Origin: Burkholderia cepacia
Lineage (GTDB): Bacteria > Pseudomonadota > Gammaproteobacteria > Burkholderiales > Burkholderiaceae
Assembly (NCBI RefSeq): GCF_029962485.1
Contig: NZ_CP073637.1
Span: forward strand, 1,922,001 to 1,986,000
Reading direction: 5' to 3'
Length of the DNA: 64,000 nucleotides
In this document: positions 47,553 to 56,030 of the stretch, piece after piece
How the letters are laid out: each line of letters begins with the position of its first letter
Position numbering within the stretch: the stretch's first letter is position 1
Translations under genes and position numbers: made by a program
The notes under the pieces: model-generated
Told to the model about the DNA's origin: nothing
The model's input: the letters and a program-made list of their open reading frames with translations, nothing else
Databases searched by the model: none

Positions 47553-48128
47553 ATGTCCATTCACCTCAGCTTCGACGACGGTCCAGGCCCGTCGACCCCT
47601 CCGTTGCTCGACGTCCTGCGCGACGCATCGTGCAAGGCAACTTTCTTCCTGCTCGGTAAAAATCTGGCGGGCGCACTCGACGTCGCCGCGAGCATGGCGC
47701 GCGAAGGCCACCGGCTCGGCAATCACACCCATTCGCACGCAAGGCCGGGCGCACTGGCGCACGACGCACTGATCGACGAGATCGAAGCGACCGACGCACT
47801 GATCCGCGATGCCTATAGGGCGGCCGGTGTTACCGCGCCGGACGCGATCCCGCTGCGTCTTCCGTACGGGCTGATGCCGCAGGACGATCGCGCCGGCGTG
47901 CTTGCGCGCCTGCGACGCGAACACACGGGCTGGACCGCGATACTCGACGACTGGCAGCGACCGGCACCGTCGCCGCAGGCGCTGTTCGACGCGATGTGCG
48001 CGCATGTCGACGCCAGCACAGCGCAGCATCGCGATGTACTGTTCTGCATGCACGACGGGTCGCGACATGGCGAAGCGCGGCCCAACACGGTCGAAGCCGT
48101 CCGCCTGTTCCTGAATCGGCGGGACTGA
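47553..48128 (+). CDS. NodB-type polysaccharide deacetylase
   Basis: A 191-residue carbohydrate esterase 4 protein without a signal peptide. The NodB catalytic motifs are present: SFDDGPG with the base Asp (residues 6-12), HTHSH with metal-binding histidines near residue 59, the RLPYGLM Arg motif near 107 and the late FCMHDGS motif. It may deacetylate a cytoplasmic or peptidoglycan-type sugar substrate. It sits next to the biosynthetic locus but on the opposite strand to its phosphotransferase. Confidence 0.82.
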   Translation: MSIHLSFDDGPGPSTPPLLDVLRDASCKATFFLLGKNLAGALDVAASMAREGHRLGNHTHSHARPGALAHDALIDEIEATDALIRDAYRAAGVTAPDAIPLRLPYGLMPQDDRAGVLARLRREHTGWTAILDDWQRPAPSPQALFDAMCAHVDASTAQHRDVLFCMHDGSRHGEARPNTVEAVRLFLNRRD

Positions 48129-48140
48129 CGCAACGGCCGG

Positions 48141-49106
48141 TCAGCTTCCCGGCGCCGCATTGTCCAGCAACTGTCGCCAGCCACCGAGGAATCCGATGCC
48201 GGGCCCCGGCATCCACAAGCCGCGCTGCGCCGCCTCCAGATGAATCAGCGTCTGGTCGGCGCAGAACAGCATCATCAACGCATCGCGATTGGCACGCATC
48301 CAGTCCGGCACACCATCGGCTCGCGTCCGTGCATAGGTGAGCAAGCCAGCCTCCCATCGCTGCGCGTTGAACACGAAACGATCGTCCCGGCCCGCGTCGC
48401 GCGACAGTGCGAACAGCGCAAACGCCGCCTCGAGCCACTGCACGCCCTGCCCGGCATCGTCGAAATCCAGCACGCCGTTCACCGCAGGCCCGACATACAG
48501 CAGGTTGCCCGCGTGATAGTCGCCGTGCAGCCAATGCACGGGCCCCGTCAGCCAGTGCGCGGCAGCGGCGAGATGCGCGCCGATCCGCCGGATCACCGTG
48601 TCGTAATCGCCGCTCAAGTCGCCCGGCAGCACCGGCATCGCGCGTACCGCCACGCGCGCATGACGCGCCGACAGCCACGCCAGCGGCGTCGATTCGCTTA
48701 CGGGTACCGCGGCCAGTGCCGCATGCAGGTGCGCGAGCGCGCGCATCGCATCGATCGCACCGGCGTGCGCGTCATTCGGCAGGCCGGGGTGACCGTCGAT
48801 ATGCTCGAACAGGTGCAGCCAGCTTCCATCGTCGATCTGCACACCGGATTGCGCATCGACGGTCGGCCGCAGCCGCGGCAGCGCGGGCAATGCCGGCGCT
48901 GTACGCGTATCACCGAGATGACCGAGTATCGACGCCTCGCGATGCACCTGCTCGACCGGCTTGCCGGACCATGACACGCGCAGCACCGCGCGCCCCGCAT
49001 CGCACTCGACGAGATACGTTTTGTTAGTATGGCCCGATGCCAGCGCCTGCACGCGTGCCGGCACGATGTTCCAGTACCGGCGAAGCCACGGTTCCAGCGT
49101 TTTCAC
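48141..49106 (-). CDS. APH-type phosphotransferase (biosynthetic locus)
   Basis: A 321-residue kinase of the aminoglycoside-phosphotransferase/choline-kinase fold. The ATP region has VLRVSWSGKP with the Lys. The catalytic loop is LHGDYHAGNLLY and the metal motif is LDFDDAGQG. Start choice: a GTG at 49106 has an AGGAG box, but an ATG at 49133 is possible and its bases overlap the CmcI-type start on the other strand. Substrate unknown; such kinases phosphorylate sugars, alcohols or antibiotics. It pairs with a second kinase gene at 52935-53930. Confidence 0.8.
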   Translation of the reverse strand: MKTLEPWLRRYWNIVPARVQALASGHTNKTYLVECDAGRAVLRVSWSGKPVEQVHREASILGHLGDTRTAPALPALPRLRPTVDAQSGVQIDDGSWLHLFEHIDGHPGLPNDAHAGAIDAMRALAHLHAALAAVPVSESTPLAWLSARHARVAVRAMPVLPGDLSGDYDTVIRRIGAHLAAAAHWLTGPVHWLHGDYHAGNLLYVGPAVNGVLDFDDAGQGVQWLEAAFALFALSRDAGRDDRFVFNAQRWEAGLLTYARTRADGVPDWMRANRDALMMLFCADQTLIHLEAAQRGLWMPGPGIGFLGGWRQLLDNAAPGS

Positions 49107-49131
49107 GTCACTCCTACTCGTTGCATTGACC

Positions 49132-49821
49132 ATGTCAGAGCGTCCTTCGGCCCGCATGCGGGACATCAATATCGAATGGCTCACGCGCGCCGCCGAATTC
49201 GACCATCTGTTCCAGACGCGCTGGCTCGGCGAGCGCTTCTTCCATCTGCCCGGCGACATGCTCGCGCTCCAGGAGCTGATCTGGCGCGAGCGCCCCGACT
49301 GCATCGTGCAGACCGGCATCGCGGCGGGCGGCGGCGTCGTGTTCTCCGCGTCGATGCTGGAACTGGCCGGCGAGCACGGCCGCGTGATCGCGATCGAGCC
49401 GCGCCTGCGCGACGACGTCAGGCAGCGCCTGCAATCGCACCGGCTCGCCCATCGCATGACGCTGATCGAAGGCGAATCGTGCGCAGCCGACACGCTCGCG
49501 TCGGTACGCGCGCAGATCGGCGACGGCGCACGCGTGATGGCGATCCTCGACCTCACGCATACACACGCACACGTGCTGCGCGAACTCGAATGCTATGCGC
49601 CACTCGTGACGGCCGGTAGCTACGCGATCGTGATGGATACGATCATGGAGTATCTGCCCGAGTCGATGTTCGACGGCAAACCGTACGGCCGAGGCAACAA
49701 CCCGGCCACGGCCGCGCGTGAATTTCTCGCGCGCGACGACCGGTTCGAAGTCGACTCCGACATCGAGGACCGCGTGCTCATGACGCTGTCGCCAGGCGGT
49801 TTCCTGAAGCGAGTGCGCTGA
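49132..49821 (+). CDS. CmcI-type SAM-dependent methyltransferase
   Basis: A 229-residue protein of the CmcI/rhamnosyl O-methyltransferase family. The SAM loop is VQTGIAAGGG near residue 60, with VIAIEPRLR as the acidic ribose-binding strand and LDLTHTHAHVLREL as the metal/acid motif. Family members methylate sugar or cephem hydroxyls. It is the only rightward gene of the locus; its 3' end overlaps the glycosyltransferase gene on the opposite strand by 44 bases. The start at 49132 is tentative. Confidence 0.78.
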   Translation: MSERPSARMRDINIEWLTRAAEFDHLFQTRWLGERFFHLPGDMLALQELIWRERPDCIVQTGIAAGGGVVFSASMLELAGEHGRVIAIEPRLRDDVRQRLQSHRLAHRMTLIEGESCAADTLASVRAQIGDGARVMAILDLTHTHAHVLRELECYAPLVTAGSYAIVMDTIMEYLPESMFDGKPYGRGNNPATAAREFLARDDRFEVDSDIEDRVLMTLSPGGFLKRVR

Positions 49822-50983
49822 TCAGGCGCGCAGCCTCCGCCGAGCCGTCGCGCACGTAGCTGTCGCGGATGCGTGCCGCGTGCTCGCGCAGCGAACCGGG
49901 ACGCAACAGGCGCTCGAGCGCCTCGGCGATATCCACAACGCCGGCCTGCTGCAGATCGAGCACGCACCCCGCGCCGGCCCGCTCGACGAAGTGCGCCGAA
50001 TGGAACTGGTCGTTACAGAACGGCGACAGCAGCATCGGCACGCCGCACGCGAGCGATTCCATTACTGAATTCGCGCCGCCGTGACTGACGAATGCATGCG
50101 TGCGTTGCAGCAGCGCCAGTTGCGGCGCATAACGCACCGCGATCACGCGCTCGTCAGCGGCCGGCAGCAGATCCGAATCGACCAGTTCACCCACCGACAG
50201 CACCAGTTGCGCCGACGTCGCCCGCGTCGCGTCGATGACCTTCGCGAACAGGTCCGGATGGTAGTAAAGCTGGCTGCCCAGCGACATGTAGACGAGCGGG
50301 CGATCGGCGTCGATGCGCTCCCACGGAAACGCCGTCTCGTCGCCGCGCGGGCCCGACGGCATCGCAGGGCCGACCAGTTCGACACCTGGCGGCGGCGCAC
50401 CGACCAGCGCGTCGGTCGTGAACGCGAGCGTGAGGTGCGGCGACAGGACATCGCAACCGCGAAAGCGCGCGTCGAGCCCGTAGCGCGCGAACAGGTTCGC
50501 GCGTTCCGGCGCGAGCCATCGCACCGTGCGCAGCAGTTCCGAATCGAGATCGTCCGGCAGCACCGGATTCAGCGAATTCGACATCGACACCCACGGCAAG
50601 CCTTCCAGCTCGGCGGCAATCGCTGCCGCATAAAGCAGCGGATCGATCACGACCACGTCAGGTCGCCAGTCGCGCAGCACCGCGCGGATGCCGTCCACCT
50701 GCGACGGCGCAAGATCGATCAGCAGCGTGCGGATCCAGTGCCGCAGCCAGCCGGCATCGCGAATGTTCGCGGCGAAGCTCGCGCCGCGCGACAGGTCGTG
50801 GCGCTCGGGTGTCTCGCGCGGCCCGACGAACACGATGCCGCCGGCGCCATCGAGCTGTTCGCTGATGTCGGCCGGCGCGTAGAACGCGACGTCGCAGCCG
50901 GCGGCGCGCAGGTGCTGGGCCGGACCGATGCATGGGTTGACGTGGCCTTTCTCGGGCACCACGCAGAACAGGATGCGTTTCAT
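49778..50983 (-). CDS. GT1-family glycosyltransferase (MGT/UGT type)
   Basis: A 401-residue GT-B enzyme. The N-terminal half starts KRILFCVVPEKGHVNPC, typical of macrolide-type glycosyltransferases. The C-terminal donor half has the UGT signature region around APQLALLQRTHAFVSHGGANSVMESLACGVPML (given as key residues His-Gly-Gly). It transfers an activated sugar to a small-molecule acceptor in the cytoplasm. Last gene of the leftward run, seven bases after the asparagine-synthetase-like gene. Confidence 0.85.
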   Translation of the reverse strand: MKRILFCVVPEKGHVNPCIGPAQHLRAAGCDVAFYAPADISEQLDGAGGIVFVGPRETPERHDLSRGASFAANIRDAGWLRHWIRTLLIDLAPSQVDGIRAVLRDWRPDVVVIDPLLYAAAIAAELEGLPWVSMSNSLNPVLPDDLDSELLRTVRWLAPERANLFARYGLDARFRGCDVLSPHLTLAFTTDALVGAPPPGVELVGPAMPSGPRGDETAFPWERIDADRPLVYMSLGSQLYYHPDLFAKVIDATRATSAQLVLSVGELVDSDLLPAADERVIAVRYAPQLALLQRTHAFVSHGGANSVMESLACGVPMLLSPFCNDQFHSAHFVERAGAGCVLDLQQAGVVDIAEALERLLRPGSLREHAARIRDSYVRDGSAEAARLISALASGNRLATAS

Positions 50984-50990
50984 GAGCGAC

Positions 50991-52058
50991 TCAGGTTGGG
51001 CGATGCGCGGCATCGAGGTGAAGGTGCTCGAGATAATCGAGGATCAGTGTCAGCGTCGCCCACAGCACGCGTTCGGTATCGGCCTGCAGCGTGGGGGCGG
51101 CAAGGCCAAGCGTGTCGGCCAGCACATGCGTGCGGTCGCGATCGAGCAGCGCGCCGAGATCCATCGCCGGCGCGAGCCGCCCGCGCTTGGGGCCATGCAC
51201 CAGACGGCCCGGCAGGTTCAGGCGCGCGCCGAGATCGCGCAGGCATTGCTTGTTCGGGTCAGGCGCGATGCTCGTCAGATGCGCGACGACGGCCGCATCG
51301 ACGAACGGCGGATGCAGGTCGACCGACGCCGCATCGAACAACGCGTGGCATAGCGGCAGATAGTTGGCCGACCGGTCACGGCGCAACACCTGATCCGCGC
51401 CGTCGCCGGTAATCGCGACCTCGATGCCGTCCGCGGCCATCGCCTCGGCCAGCAACAGCTTCGCGACCGGATGCAGGTTGAACATCGGTTCCTCGACCGC
51501 ATGGGTCGTTCTCGGCAGCGCCGCGACGAAATCGGCCTCGTTCGCGCGGACGATCTTCACGTTCGCCTGCATCTGCGTGGCCAGTTCGAGCGCCGCGTCG
51601 AGTTCGCAGTAGTCGGGCATGTCGGTCGCGAGAATGTAGGCCGTCACGTGCGGCAGTGCGCCGAGTTCGCGCAGTTGCGCGAGCAACAGCGCCGAATCGA
51701 GCCCGCCGCTCAGCGCCAGTGCGACGCGCTTGCCGCTGTCGAGCGCGCGTTGCAGCGACGCGCGCAGCACGGTGTCCAGATCGGCGTACTGTGGCCGTTC
51801 CGGCGACGGCTGCACCGCCAGCCCTTCCGGCGAACGGATCAGCGCGTGCCCGGGCGGCACCGCAAGCACGTCGCGCAGCACGGTGCGGCCGACGAGACGC
51901 TCGCCGCTCAGGTAGCCCGCGATGGCCGCCGTGTCCGGCGCACCGGCCGGTTGCCCCGCCGCACGCAGCGCGGCGCGAATGCCGGACGCCGACACGCCGC
52001 TGCGCGGATGGTAGTGAAGACGATCGAAACCGAACGGGTCGCGCGTGCCGACGATCAT
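50991..52058 (-). CDS. Asparagine-synthetase-like amidotransferase lacking the front of its glutaminase domain
   Basis: A 355-residue protein. The ATP pyrophosphatase domain has the P-loop SGGLDSALL near residue 117 and the later DGADQVLRRDRS motif. The N-terminal ~110 residues match only the second half of the glutaminase domain (RDPFGFDRLHYH and VPPGHALI); the Cys2-bearing front is missing and no Cys can serve. It should activate a carboxylate by adenylation and use another amine or ammonia. Similar shortened proteins make amides or beta-lactam rings. Its ATG overlaps the radical SAM stop by four bases. Confidence 0.82.
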   Translation of the reverse strand: MIVGTRDPFGFDRLHYHPRSGVSASGIRAALRAAGQPAGAPDTAAIAGYLSGERLVGRTVLRDVLAVPPGHALIRSPEGLAVQPSPERPQYADLDTVLRASLQRALDSGKRVALALSGGLDSALLLAQLRELGALPHVTAYILATDMPDYCELDAALELATQMQANVKIVRANEADFVAALPRTTHAVEEPMFNLHPVAKLLLAEAMAADGIEVAITGDGADQVLRRDRSANYLPLCHALFDAASVDLHPPFVDAAVVAHLTSIAPDPNKQCLRDLGARLNLPGRLVHGPKRGRLAPAMDLGALLDRDRTHVLADTLGLAAPTLQADTERVLWATLTLILDYLEHLHLDAAHRPT

Positions 52059-52933
52059 GGATAACGGGCCTTCAAGGTGTCCACTTCAATGCGTTTCAGG
52101 ATGCGATGCGGCGCCACCGGCGCGCTGCCGCCCTGGCAATGCAGGCACGCTTCGAGCGGCGCCTCGCGTTGCAGATAGGCGAGCATCGCGTCGAGCATGC
52201 CCGCGTCGTCGCGCAGCGGCAGGCCGTCGGCCTGAAAATCCTTCTCGCCCTTGTAGAGCGTATGGAAATGCGCGGGACGCGTGCACGTGTAGAACATGCC
52301 GTCGCGAATCATATGGCAGCGCTCGCGGATCCAGCAATCGTGATAGAGGCGCTGCGCTTCGTCGCGGTCGGTGCCGGGCTGTGCGCGATTCATCGTCGTG
52401 AACACGTCCTGCACCTTCCAGTTCAGGCGCACGTCGAAACGCGCGGCCTGACGCTCGACGTAGGCGACCAGGTCGGACGAAAGCGCCGGCTTCGGATAGC
52501 GCGAGATCGTCAGCGCATCCACCACCTGCCAGAACGCGTCCGGCATCTCGCCGAGCTTCAGCCCGTTCGTCGTGACGGAGATCACGGGTGCGATGCCCGT
52601 CGCGCGCACGCGTTCGACCAGTTCGACGAGCGCCGGATGCAGCAGCGGCTCGCCGCCGACCAGCTTGAACATGCGCGGGCTCAACACCTTCGCAGCCTTG
52701 CGCAGATCAGCCTCGATCGATTCGGGGCTCGCATGCCACTCGGGCAACAGCGGCGACAGCGAGCAGCATTCCGCACAGGTCAGGTTGCAATGATCGACGA
52801 TATGCGCTTCCAGCGAGCGCGTGCGGACGCGACCGTTTTCGACGCGGTAGTCGCGATCGAGCGGCGGCGGGAAGACATGCTGCCGCTCGCCGGACGGTGA
52901 CGGATTCGGGATCGTGTTCGGATTCGCACTCAC
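52055..52933 (-). CDS. Radical SAM enzyme with extra C-terminal cysteines
   Basis: A 292-residue radical SAM protein. The iron-sulfur motif CNLTCAEC (Cys at about 49, 53, 56) is followed by the SAM-binding VGGEPLL. The C-terminal half has further Cys: CWIRERCHM, YTCTRPAHF and CLHCQGG, a pattern like an auxiliary (SPASM/twitch) cluster. It starts at a GTG two bases after the kinase stop, with an AGGAA box. Reaction unknown: dehydrogenation, C-C coupling or epimerisation of a sugar or amino acid are all possible. Confidence 0.82.
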   Translation of the reverse strand: MSANPNTIPNPSPSGERQHVFPPPLDRDYRVENGRVRTRSLEAHIVDHCNLTCAECCSLSPLLPEWHASPESIEADLRKAAKVLSPRMFKLVGGEPLLHPALVELVERVRATGIAPVISVTTNGLKLGEMPDAFWQVVDALTISRYPKPALSSDLVAYVERQAARFDVRLNWKVQDVFTTMNRAQPGTDRDEAQRLYHDCWIRERCHMIRDGMFYTCTRPAHFHTLYKGEKDFQADGLPLRDDAGMLDAMLAYLQREAPLEACLHCQGGSAPVAPHRILKRIEVDTLKARYP

Positions 52934-52934
52934 T

Positions 52935-53930
52935 TCAGGTTCCTGCTTCCGTGCAACGGGAAAAGAAATCGACGAGATGGCCACGCGCGTCCACCATCGC
53001 GGACGCCATCGTCACCGCGCCGCTCAGGTGCGACGCGAAGCGCGACGGATCGTCGAGCCAGCCTTGCACGACCCACAGCTTGAGCGCGTGCTGCAGGCAT
53101 GCGGCATCGACCGCCCACGCGATGCGCGCGGGACTCACCGGCCGTACCCGCTGGTATCCGCGCACGAACGCTGCTGCCAGCTGAGGCGCTTCCAGCGGCA
53201 GATGATTCAGGCACCGCACCAGTTCGTACTCGCGCGGCGCGCCAATCGACGCTTCCCAGTCGAGGATCAGCGGCGGCAGCCTGCCCGTAAACAGATAGTT
53301 GAACTGGTTGTAGTCGTTGTGGATCGGGTGTTGCGGATCGTCGGCGGGAAACGCATCGATGCTGCCGGAATAGTAGCGGTCGAGCATGCGCAGCGCGAGA
53401 TCGACATAGCGGCGCAGGTTCTCGGTGTTGTCGTTCGAGCGTGCGTGATTCAGCGCATCGAGCAAACTGCGCCGCACCGCATCCGCGTCGATCGCGGCCA
53501 GCCGCGCGCGGATCGTGTCGAGCTGCGGCAAACAAAGCTGCTCAAGGCTCAGATGCAACGCCGCCAGGCTCGCACCGAGTGCATCCCATTCGGTCGGTGA
53601 AAACGTATCGTAGGTTCTGAACTGCCCGGCTTCCCAGCGCGTCAACATCGCGTGCGATCCTTGCCCCGTCCACAGCGGCTCGCCGGACGTCGTGCGTTTC
53701 AGCGTCTGTACATGGAATCGGGGATCGCCGTGCGTTTCGAGGTGCGCGAGGACAGCAGCCTCCTTGGTCGCGCGTGCAAGATGTTCGGACGCATAGAGCT
53801 TGACCGCCACACCACCGCCACTGTCAGTCGGCAAATGCCATACGCGATCGCTGACGCGGCGCGGCGCCTCGCTGCGGCCGAGCGCATAGGCATCGCGAAT
53901 CTCGTCGAAGGTAGCGGCGAGCGCGTCCAT
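52935..53930 (-). CDS. APH-type phosphotransferase, second copy
   Basis: A 331-residue aminoglycoside-phosphotransferase-fold protein. The catalytic loop is HNDYNQFNYLF (Asp base, Asn), and the metal motif LILDWEASIGAPREYEL. The N-terminal nucleotide lobe is short (VAVKLYASEHL with the Lys). It abuts the FkbM gene: its ATG directly follows the TGA of the latter. It could install a phosphate on the pathway intermediate or provide self-resistance. Confidence 0.8.
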   Translation of the reverse strand: MDALAATFDEIRDAYALGRSEAPRRVSDRVWHLPTDSGGGVAVKLYASEHLARATKEAAVLAHLETHGDPRFHVQTLKRTTSGEPLWTGQGSHAMLTRWEAGQFRTYDTFSPTEWDALGASLAALHLSLEQLCLPQLDTIRARLAAIDADAVRRSLLDALNHARSNDNTENLRRYVDLALRMLDRYYSGSIDAFPADDPQHPIHNDYNQFNYLFTGRLPPLILDWEASIGAPREYELVRCLNHLPLEAPQLAAAFVRGYQRVRPVSPARIAWAVDAACLQHALKLWVVQGWLDDPSRFASHLSGAVTMASAMVDARGHLVDFFSRCTEAGT

Positions 53931-54680
53931 TCAGATGTGCTCGGCCGGCCCGTGCCGATACGGATGACCGGTCAGGAACGTGTTGTGCCCGACATAGCGC
54001 AGCTTGTACATCGCCGGCCGGAACAGCACCGAAGGATCGTTGTTCGCGATGCCGAGCAGCGGATACAGGTCCTGCCGCACGAAGAATGCGTTGTTGCCCA
54101 TGTCGTCGCAGCAGACGAGTTCGTAACCCTTCTGCCGGCCGAGATGCACGAGCGATTCGAGGCTCGCGCCGTAATAGGTCGAGCCGTCCCATTCATGGTC
54201 CGGATTGAAACACATGACCCAGCGCTCGGGTGGCGTGTAGTACGGGTTGTATTCGATCACGACGATGCGCGGCTTGAACGCTCGCAGGCCGCGCCAGACC
54301 CAGTAGTCGTTGCCGTCGATGTCGATCGACAGCAGGTCGAAGTCCTCAGGCGTGTTCGCATCGGCAAGCAGTTGATCGATCGTGTCGGGCTGGACGCGAT
54401 CGTGATGCAGCAGGACGCGCTCTGCACCTGCGTAGTGCGCGGCAAGCTTGCCGAACCGGTACGCGCTGCCTTCCACCAGCACGCCTGCCCAATCCTGCTC
54501 GCGAAGCAGCCGTGCGGTGTTGCTGTTGCGCAGGCCGTCACTCGCGCCGATATCGACGCAGAAGCGGTTGGTCGGCGCGATCCGCTCCATCAGCCGCGCG
54601 AGGATGCTTTCCTCTGTGCCCTGCGCGTACAGGCTTGGCGCAAGGCCGGACAGATCGAGCGGGAGAGGATGGTCCTGCAT
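53931..54680 (-). CDS. FkbM-family methyltransferase
   Basis: A 249-residue SAM-dependent methyltransferase-fold protein. The SAM loop CVDIGASDG is near residue 41, with LLVEG and DLLSIDIDGND as later motifs. FkbM-type enzymes methylate hydroxyls of sugars or polyketides. First gene of the leftward biosynthetic run; ATG at 54680. Many homologues are in surface-glycan loci, so the methyltransferase function is inferred from the fold. Confidence 0.8.
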   Translation of the reverse strand: MQDHPLPLDLSGLAPSLYAQGTEESILARLMERIAPTNRFCVDIGASDGLRNSNTARLLREQDWAGVLVEGSAYRFGKLAAHYAGAERVLLHHDRVQPDTIDQLLADANTPEDFDLLSIDIDGNDYWVWRGLRAFKPRIVVIEYNPYYTPPERWVMCFNPDHEWDGSTYYGASLESLVHLGRQKGYELVCCDDMGNNAFFVRQDLYPLLGIANNDPSVLFRPAMYKLRYVGHNTFLTGHPYRHGPAEHI

Positions 54681-54873: not shown

Positions 54874-55012
54874 TTACTCCTGCCCCTGACTCGTCAGGAA
54901 CTCCTCGTAATTCCCGCCGAAGTCGAACAGCGTGCTGTCCGTGCGCACTTCGATGATCCGGTTCGCCAGCCCGCTCACGAATTCGCGGTCGTGCGACAGC
55001 CAGACCCAATCT
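54874..55012 (-). pseudogene. 3' end of an ABC-F ATPase gene, cut by an integrative element
   Basis: Reading leftward, the frame that ends in the TAA at 54874 encodes VWLSHDREFVSGLAN...RIIEV...LFDFGGNYEEFLTSQ. The SHDREFV motif and the following segments are the C-terminal end of an ABC-F (YbiT/EttA-like) translation factor. Homology to the family stops near 55005, where island DNA and the integrase begin; the frame runs a few codons into the island before a stop. The rest of the gene is not in the window and must lie beyond the island, or be replaced there. Confidence 0.75.
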
Positions 55013-55040
55013 GATTTCCTGTAACTATCTGGAGGTCAGA

Positions 55041-56030
55041 ATGGCATCTATCGTTCAACGTGGGTACAAATGGCAAGCCAAAATTCGGGTCCAGGGCCAG
55101 CCCATCCGCTCCAAAACTTTCGATACGAGGGAGGCTGCGGAGCAATGGGCGGCCGAACAGGAGGCTATCAAGCCAACTCCCAAGCAGCCCCGTAAGGTCC
55201 GCGAGAAGCCCCCTACGCTCACCGTGGGAGACCTCTTTGCACGGTACATCAAAGCCCCTCTACCGGGCCGCCGGAATGTCGAATGGGAGCGCGGAATATG
55301 CCGCCGCTTCATCCGCAACGAAAAGAAGCTATGCGCCGTCCCAGCCACGAAGCTGGACAAGCCGCATTTGGTCGAATGGCGGGATCGTCGTATCGGAGAG
55401 GTTGCTCCTAGCACGGTAATCCGGGAGCTAGACGCCATATCCGCCGTGTACCGCCTCGCTATAGATGAGTGGGCCGTGGGTCTGACCGTCAATCCGACCA
55501 AGGGACTACGCCGGCCCAAGCTCCCGCCTCCCCGCGACGTGAGGCTTGCCATAGGCGACGACGAAAAGCTGATCGCATCCGCTATCGACTACAACCGGGA
55601 GATTGCCCCAGCCATCGTTCTGGCAATTGAGACAGCCATGCGTCAGGGTGAGATAGCCAAGCTCCGCTGGGAGCACATCGACCTGGACGCCCGGACGGTT
55701 CTGCTACCTATGACCAAGAACGGGACACCCCGAAAGGTTCCTCTATCGAGCCGGGCAATCGAGGCTCTAACGTGGTGTCCTCCGCCGCATCGTGGTCGCG
55801 TGTTCAAGCTCACGCAGTCGGCCATGAAATACGCATTCAGTCGTGTACGCGAAGAGTGCGGCCTCGGGACAATCCATTTCCACGACCTACGACACGAAGC
55901 GACAAGCAGACTGTTCGAAAAGGGATTGAACGTCCTTGAGGTAGCGACAATAACCGGCCACAAGAACCTCAAGCACCTGCAGCGATACACGCACCTCCGA
56001 GCTGAAGACTTAGCGAAAAAGCTAGGCTAA
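55041..56030 (+). CDS. Tyrosine site-specific integrase
   Basis: A 329-residue phage-type integrase. An N-terminal arm-binding domain (to ~60), a core-binding SAM-like domain (about 65-165) and the catalytic domain follow. Active-site residues are visible: Arg in MRQGEIAKL (about 201), the Lys after it, HDLRH (about 281), GHKN and the nucleophilic Tyr in RYTHL (about 315). A GGAGG box lies before the ATG. It is the outermost island gene and would act on the att site in the ABC-F gene. Confidence 0.92.
   Translation: MASIVQRGYKWQAKIRVQGQPIRSKTFDTREAAEQWAAEQEAIKPTPKQPRKVREKPPTLTVGDLFARYIKAPLPGRRNVEWERGICRRFIRNEKKLCAVPATKLDKPHLVEWRDRRIGEVAPSTVIRELDAISAVYRLAIDEWAVGLTVNPTKGLRRPKLPPPRDVRLAIGDDEKLIASAIDYNREIAPAIVLAIETAMRQGEIAKLRWEHIDLDARTVLLPMTKNGTPRKVPLSSRAIEALTWCPPPHRGRVFKLTQSAMKYAFSRVREECGLGTIHFHDLRHEATSRLFEKGLNVLEVATITGHKNLKHLQRYTHLRAEDLAKKLG

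What the first reader, a model, noticed from the sequence alone, without database searches (positions are those of the whole stretch)
48141..54680. Uncharacterised biosynthetic locus with radical SAM, amide synthetase, GT1, two kinases and two methyltransferases
Five leftward genes are joined by four-base overlaps or one- to seven-base gaps (FkbM methyltransferase, APH kinase, radical SAM, asparagine-synthetase-like, GT1). A CmcI-type methyltransferase and a second APH kinase abut them. The combination predicts a small, glycosylated, amidated and O-methylated product, with kinases as tailoring enzymes or self-resistance. No polyketide, NRPS or precursor-peptide gene is visible, so the scaffold must come from primary metabolism or a RiPP precursor encoded elsewhere.
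Basis: partly seen in the sequence, partly recalled or inferred. Interest (0 to 1): 0.78.

Follow-up and report, generated by a model that had tools for sequence, protein, structure and literature searches.

The report
Eight-gene aminoglycoside-like sugar pathway
An eight-gene cassette that keeps the same order in Burkholderia and several related bacteria is predicted to build an unknown aminoglycoside-like sugar compound, likely with a radical enzyme that flips one carbon of the sugar; its product and purpose are not known.

The parts
47553..48128 (+). NodB-type (CE4) N-deacetylase, 191 aa
   Evidence: PF01522 4.1e-22; TIGR04243 NodB 5.9e-20, below its cut-off; FDDG, HTHSH and RLPYG present, these motif patterns in 25 of 25 loci
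48141..49133 (-). APH2, small-molecule kinase of APH/homoserine-kinase fold, 330 aa
   Evidence: PF01636 2.2e-22 (on the longer 471-aa ORF); HGDYHAGN and DFD, patterns in 25 of 25 loci
49132..49821 (+). CmcI/rhamnosyl O-methyltransferase family protein, 229 aa
   Evidence: PF04989 8e-62; CmcI structure 2.1e-4
49131..49134 (.). CATG in which the divergent start codons of APH2 and CmcI overlap
   Evidence: sequence; same 685-base offset between the two genes in 18 of 25 loci, read
49778..50983 (-). GT1 (MGT/EryCIII-like) glycosyltransferase, 401 aa
   Evidence: PF00201 5.3e-20; TIGR01426 2e-40, below its cut-off
50991..52058 (-). asparagine-synthetase-like ATP-dependent amide ligase without the glutaminase half, 355 aa
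52055..52933 (-). HygY/SpeY-like twitch radical SAM enzyme, predicted epimerase, 292 aa
52935..53930 (-). APH1, second small-molecule kinase, 331 aa
   Evidence: PF01636 2.3e-14; HNDYNQFN, pattern in 25 of 25 loci; LDWE in 21 of 25
53931..54680 (-). FkbM-family methyltransferase, 249 aa; first gene of the operon
   Evidence: PF05050 6.9e-8; 79-97% identity in the complete Burkholderia, Paraburkholderia, Trinickia, Bordetella and Achromobacter loci

Best explanation
Eight genes kept in one order across several genera of Burkholderiales form a cassette that likely makes one small aminoglycoside-like metabolite, in which GT1 would attach a GlcNAc-type sugar to an acceptor from primary metabolism, the NodB-type deacetylase would free its amine, and the radical SAM enzyme is predicted to invert a hydroxyl-bearing sugar carbon. 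Inferred in detail: the radical SAM protein takes a hydrogen atom from a CH-OH carbon with 5'-deoxyadenosyl radical and gives one back from Cys206 (HygY-type redox-neutral epimerisation rather than SpeY-type oxidation). The glutaminase-less asparagine-synthetase-like enzyme adenylates a carboxylate and joins it to an amine (the freed sugar amine, or ammonia). FkbM and CmcI O-methylate hydroxyls. APH1, and perhaps APH2, phosphorylate an intermediate. Shown: the gene families, the conserved unit, the all-or-none occurrence of four marker genes, the purifying selection, the missing glutaminase half and the conserved Cys206. Not shown: any substrate, the order of steps, or the product.
Against: The SpeY/HygY match is only 31-37% identical, so the substrate need not be an aminocyclitol glycoside. 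No gene for a cyclitol, aminosugar or sugar nucleotide is among the eight, and no myo-inositol-phosphate synthase was found in the genome. The GT1 donor is not determined; NodB relatives in the PDB are mostly polysaccharide or peptidoglycan deacetylases. Cys206 could bind a cluster rather than donate hydrogen. Paraliomyxa keeps only FkbM-APH1-radical SAM-CmcI together, with AsnS-AsnB-GT1 elsewhere and no NodB-type deacetylase in either locus, so the deacetylation step may not be universal. In L102 the AsnS resemblance is only 27% and the radical SAM gene is cut by the contig end. No dedicated transporter or regulator is in the cassette.
Confidence: 0.5

Rival explanations
1. The cassette modifies a cell-envelope glycan or glycolipid (for example an LPS, capsule or glycolipid sugar) rather than making a free small molecule.
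For: FkbM, CmcI/rhamnosyl methyltransferase, GT1 and NodB families are common in envelope pathways (recalled); NCBIfam's only hit for CmcI is rhamnosyl O-methyltransferase, below its cut-off; no transporter in the cassette.
Against: No sugar-nucleotide, flippase, polymerase or priming gene among the eight; the radical SAM enzyme is nearest to small aminocyclitol-glycoside enzymes; of the window's ORFs from 36 to 64 kb only those inside the cassette matched in the six non-Burkholderia loci checked.
Confidence: 0.2
2. The radical SAM enzyme is a SpeY-type dehydrogenase that makes a ketone, and the product is a keto-sugar aminoglycoside analogue.
For: SpeY is the top match by sequence among solved structures and by structure.
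Against: Cys206, present in the Streptomyces HygY-like protein and replaced by Ser in SpeY, is kept in 36 of 36 aligned relatives.
Confidence: 0.2
3. An intracellular glycosidic cofactor or protectant of mycothiol type: GlcNAc transfer, deacetylation, then ATP-dependent amide coupling to the freed amine.
For: Same order of reaction types as mycothiol (recalled); PIG-L deacetylase in two distant versions; no exporter or regulator in the cassette; clean chromosomal cassette.
Against: Patchy presence, 31 of 65 Burkholderia genomes, which is unusual for a core redox cofactor; no inositol synthase found; methyltransferases and kinases are unexplained.
Confidence: 0.15
4. A RiPP pathway with a precursor peptide encoded elsewhere, the radical SAM and asparagine-synthetase-like proteins acting as maturases.
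For: Lasso and other macrolactam cyclases share the Asn_synthase fold (weak hits far below cut-off); weak radical SAM hits to some RiPP maturase models.
Against: No shared small ORF seen by eye in the 300 bases upstream of FkbM in 7 loci; none of the eight is a leader peptidase; best radical SAM matches are sugar enzymes, far above the RiPP maturases (33.4 against at most 11.8).
Confidence: 0.05

Closest known systems
HygY (hygromycin B) and SpeY (spectinomycin) twitch radical SAM enzymes
   Different: 31-37% identity; no cyclitol, aminotransferase or sugar-nucleotide genes in the cassette; a different set of partner enzymes
Asparagine synthetase B / beta-lactam synthetase / carbapenam synthetase
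   Different: The first about 130 residues, with the catalytic cysteine (recalled), are missing; 0 of 120 listed relatives start Met-Cys
Mycothiol-type logic (GlcNAc transfer, deacetylation, amide ligation)
   Same: Predicted order of reaction types; two distant versions even carry a PIG-L deacetylase
   Different: Other enzyme families (GT1 rather than the MshA type, AsnS rather than the MshC type; recalled), radical SAM, kinases and methyltransferases added, no inositol synthase found

Membership tests
HygY/SpeY twitch radical SAM family | CxxxCxxC radical SAM motif and twitch cysteines | tested here: met
   C49, C53, C56, C200, C217, C263, C266 invariant in 36 of 36; they align with SpeY and with the SAT1 protein
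HygY/SpeY twitch radical SAM family | structure matches the family far better than other radical SAM enzymes | tested here: met
HygY-type epimerase | hydrogen-donor cysteine at the position of HygY Cys183 | tested here: met
   Cys206 aligns with Cys183 of the SAT1 protein, which I take to be HygY-like from its setting; that Cys183 is the donor is recalled from Besandre et al. 2021, whose title alone was seen, in a reference list
HygY-type epimerase | epimerisation of an aminocyclitol glycoside | not testable with these tools
   needs enzyme and substrate
Aminoglycoside biosynthesis cluster | genes that build the cyclitol or aminosugar scaffold (cyclitol synthase, dehydrogenase, aminotransferase) | tested here: not met
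   none among the eight; so it is not filed as one
RiPP cluster | precursor peptide gene | tested here: inconclusive
   no shared small ORF seen within 300 bases upstream of FkbM in 7 loci (by eye); rest of the genome not searched
Glutamine-hydrolysing asparagine synthetase | N-terminal glutaminase domain with cysteine 1 | tested here: not met
   residue 1 aligns with AsnB residue 132; no GATase domain found
Prokaryotic viperin | best match among radical SAM structures | tested here: not met

The most novel reading that the evidence does not exclude
A family of aminoglycoside-like metabolites of Gram-negative bacteria, made without dedicated scaffold genes: a common cellular acceptor is glycosylated, N-deacetylated, amide-coupled, phosphorylated and O-methylated, and a HygY-type radical SAM epimerase outside actinomycetes resets one sugar stereocentre. 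The whole pathway is a compact eight-gene cassette that inserts cleanly between ordinary genes and has older, split or extended versions in myxobacteria-like lineages.
Probability: 0.35. Interest if true: 0.75.

Novelty: new variant of a known kind. Interest (0 to 1): 0.62.

Why it matters
About half of the Burkholderia genomes examined (31 of 65) carry this cassette, including species of the cepacia complex (names; group membership recalled). Five keyword searches aimed at it listed no paper whose title points to it. If the reading holds, it gives Gram-negative bacteria a compact aminoglycoside-like chemistry, a testable second lineage of HygY-type epimerases, a naturally glutaminase-free amide ligase, and a defined gene set for finding the product by deletion and metabolomics.

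Tried and rejected
RiPP precursor: looked by eye for shared small ORFs upstream of FkbM in 7 loci; none, apart from the end of the ABC-F gene in L043 and L046. Viperin/defence reading: PADLOC hit is weak and structure favours SpeY. Inositol acceptor made in the cell: no PF01658 match in the genome (6 of 14 control genomes ring). An orthologue of the extra AsnB found in distant versions (L063, L068, L099) was looked for only among the 8 GATase_6 loci: the best, L001, is 33-36% identical, against about 50% among the three, so none recognised. Literature: of ten searches, five were aimed at the cassette or at such pathways in Burkholderia. Searches found no paper, one, one search had 48 (10 listed), one search had 13 (10 listed); none of the listed titles concerns it. 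The other five were aimed at 7wzv, SpeY and HygY. The library holds only open-licence PMC papers and matching is by keyword, so this is weak evidence of absence. The HygY paper itself is not held; its cysteine-183 mechanism is recalled. PMC10991966: one passage of its reference list seen. PMC10826400 (BGC survey of 366 Burkholderia): search listing and one passage seen. A fused FkbM with an AadA C-terminal domain (P0290) was followed but is one metagenome protein; no locus held has a match better than E 0.08.

Results against: of 14 cassette-less Burkholderia genomes probed, only G009 shows the two flanking genes side by side; in G010 and G022 they lie about 38 and 13 kb apart, and 11 gave no match to the second flank gene at E 1e-15; in cassette-bearing G034 that second flank gene is about 18 kb from the cassette. 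The radical SAM gene is rare beyond the genus: 24 of 299 family genomes (21 of them Burkholderia), 2 of 369 class genomes (own included; the other distant), 4 of 188 in the phylum of Paraliomyxa (three of them distant), all at E 1e-30. Motifs not kept in every locus: deacetylase DW motif 23 of 25, APH1 LDWE 21, GT1 SHGGANSVME 16, FkbM motifs 24 and 22.

Full report
What is there. Eight genes lie between 47553 and 54680. On the minus strand FkbM (54680-53931), APH1, radical SAM, AsnS-like and GT1 (to 49778) follow each other with spacings of 0, 1, -4 and 7 bases. A CmcI-type methyltransferase (49132-49821, plus) runs into the end of GT1, and APH2 (49133-48141, minus) leaves from the same CATG.

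Is it a unit? From one scan of the genome collection with the radical SAM protein (27 loci), 25 hold all eight genes in the same order and orientation (APH2 aligned only in part in L059 and L061); L052 is cut by the contig end; Paraliomyxa miuraensis (L065) has only FkbM-APH1-radical SAM-CmcI. One of the 25, a Proteobacteria MAG (L063), has an extra full-length AsnB between AsnS and GT1. That scan depends on the radical SAM gene, so I searched 65 Burkholderia genomes separately with FkbM, AsnS and the deacetylase: each is in 31 (E 1e-20 or better), the same 31 that hold the full-length radical SAM protein (E 3.7e-167 or better; other matches are 4.5e-7 or worse) (sets compared). The other four genes were not searched on their own.

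Purifying selection: dN/dS 0.077-0.337 for eight genes against four loci; APH2 is the loosest.

Cassette borders. In the six non-Burkholderia loci compared, only ORFs inside the cassette matched the window (36-64 kb, E 1e-15). In G033 the eight genes sit between an ABC-F ATPase and a small flank gene; in G009 these two genes are neighbours, with a gap of about 0.1 kb and none of the eight genes in the stretch. This clean empty site is one of 14 cassette-less genomes probed; in the other 13 the second flank gene is elsewhere or was not found. In the window an integrase island begins on the FkbM side, after a short 3' remnant of the ABC-F gene.

The amide ligase. Residue 1 of the AsnS-like protein aligns with residue 132 of E. 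coli AsnB in the structural alignment: the glutaminase half is gone. AsnB, beta-lactam synthetase and carbapenam synthetase are tied as nearest folds. Of 120 listed relatives (169 found) 119 keep the SGGxDS loop and none starts Met-Cys. In L063, L068 (a second Paraliomyxa locus) and L099 a short AsnS is followed by a full-length AsnB and GT1, so an older pathway probably had both, and the Burkholderia cassette kept the short one. In L099 the loop of the short copy is degenerate. 26 longest-contig lengths are shared between the listed radical SAM and AsnS hits (118 of the 120 radical SAM rows give one), which suggests the same contigs.

Glycosylation and deacetylation. GT1 belongs to the MGT/EryCIII group. 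The deacetylase keeps the FDDG, HxxxH and RxPYG motifs in 25 of 25 loci (their meaning is recalled). In two distant relatives with AsnS and GT1 homologues (L099, L102), a PIG-L GlcNAc deacetylase takes its place (the L102 radical SAM gene is cut by the contig end, and its AsnS is only 27% identical). Two unrelated deacetylases beside related GT1 and ligase genes argue for a GlcNAc-to-GlcN step (inference).

Kinases and methyltransferases. Both kinases keep the HxDxxxxN motif in 25 of 25 loci. APH1 stays with the reduced Paraliomyxa set, so it is more likely a pathway enzyme than a resistance gene (inference). FkbM is among the most conserved genes across genera.

Conclusion. One pathway cassette: close to certain. 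A sugar product with deacetylated amino sugar, amide and O-methyl groups: likely. Aminoglycoside-like with HygY-type epimerisation: best single reading, about even odds. It works like aminoglycoside tailoring, but it is not filed as an aminoglycoside cluster, because no scaffold genes are among the eight.

Noticed in passing
54874-56030 and onward to 64000: A phage-type integrase (55041-56030, +; PF00589) and a drop of GC from about 0.65 to 0.52-0.60 begin right after a short 3' remnant of an ABC-F ATPase gene: an island inserted beside the cassette in this strain.
   Followed up: partly
49131-49134: Divergent genes APH2 and CmcI share overlapping start codons in one CATG, with the same offset in 18 of 25 loci (read), so promoters for the pair would have to lie inside the neighbouring genes.
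   Followed up: partly
P0290 (metagenome protein): An FkbM homologue fused to a C-terminal piece of an AadA-type streptomycin/spectinomycin adenylyltransferase; its longest contig has the same length as that of a radical SAM (P0043) and an AsnS (P0202) homologue.
   Followed up: partly
L099:14170-15006 and L102:4198-5055: An ORF without any Pfam match between GT1 and the PIG-L deacetylase; it has glycine-rich motifs that look like a sugar kinase of ASKHA type, possibly permuted and possibly replacing the APH kinases (by eye).
   Followed up: no
L099:9024-10166: The short AsnS copy in this distant genome has a degenerate PP-loop (GGGVDA) next to a full-length AsnB, perhaps a pseudo-enzyme partner.
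   Followed up: no
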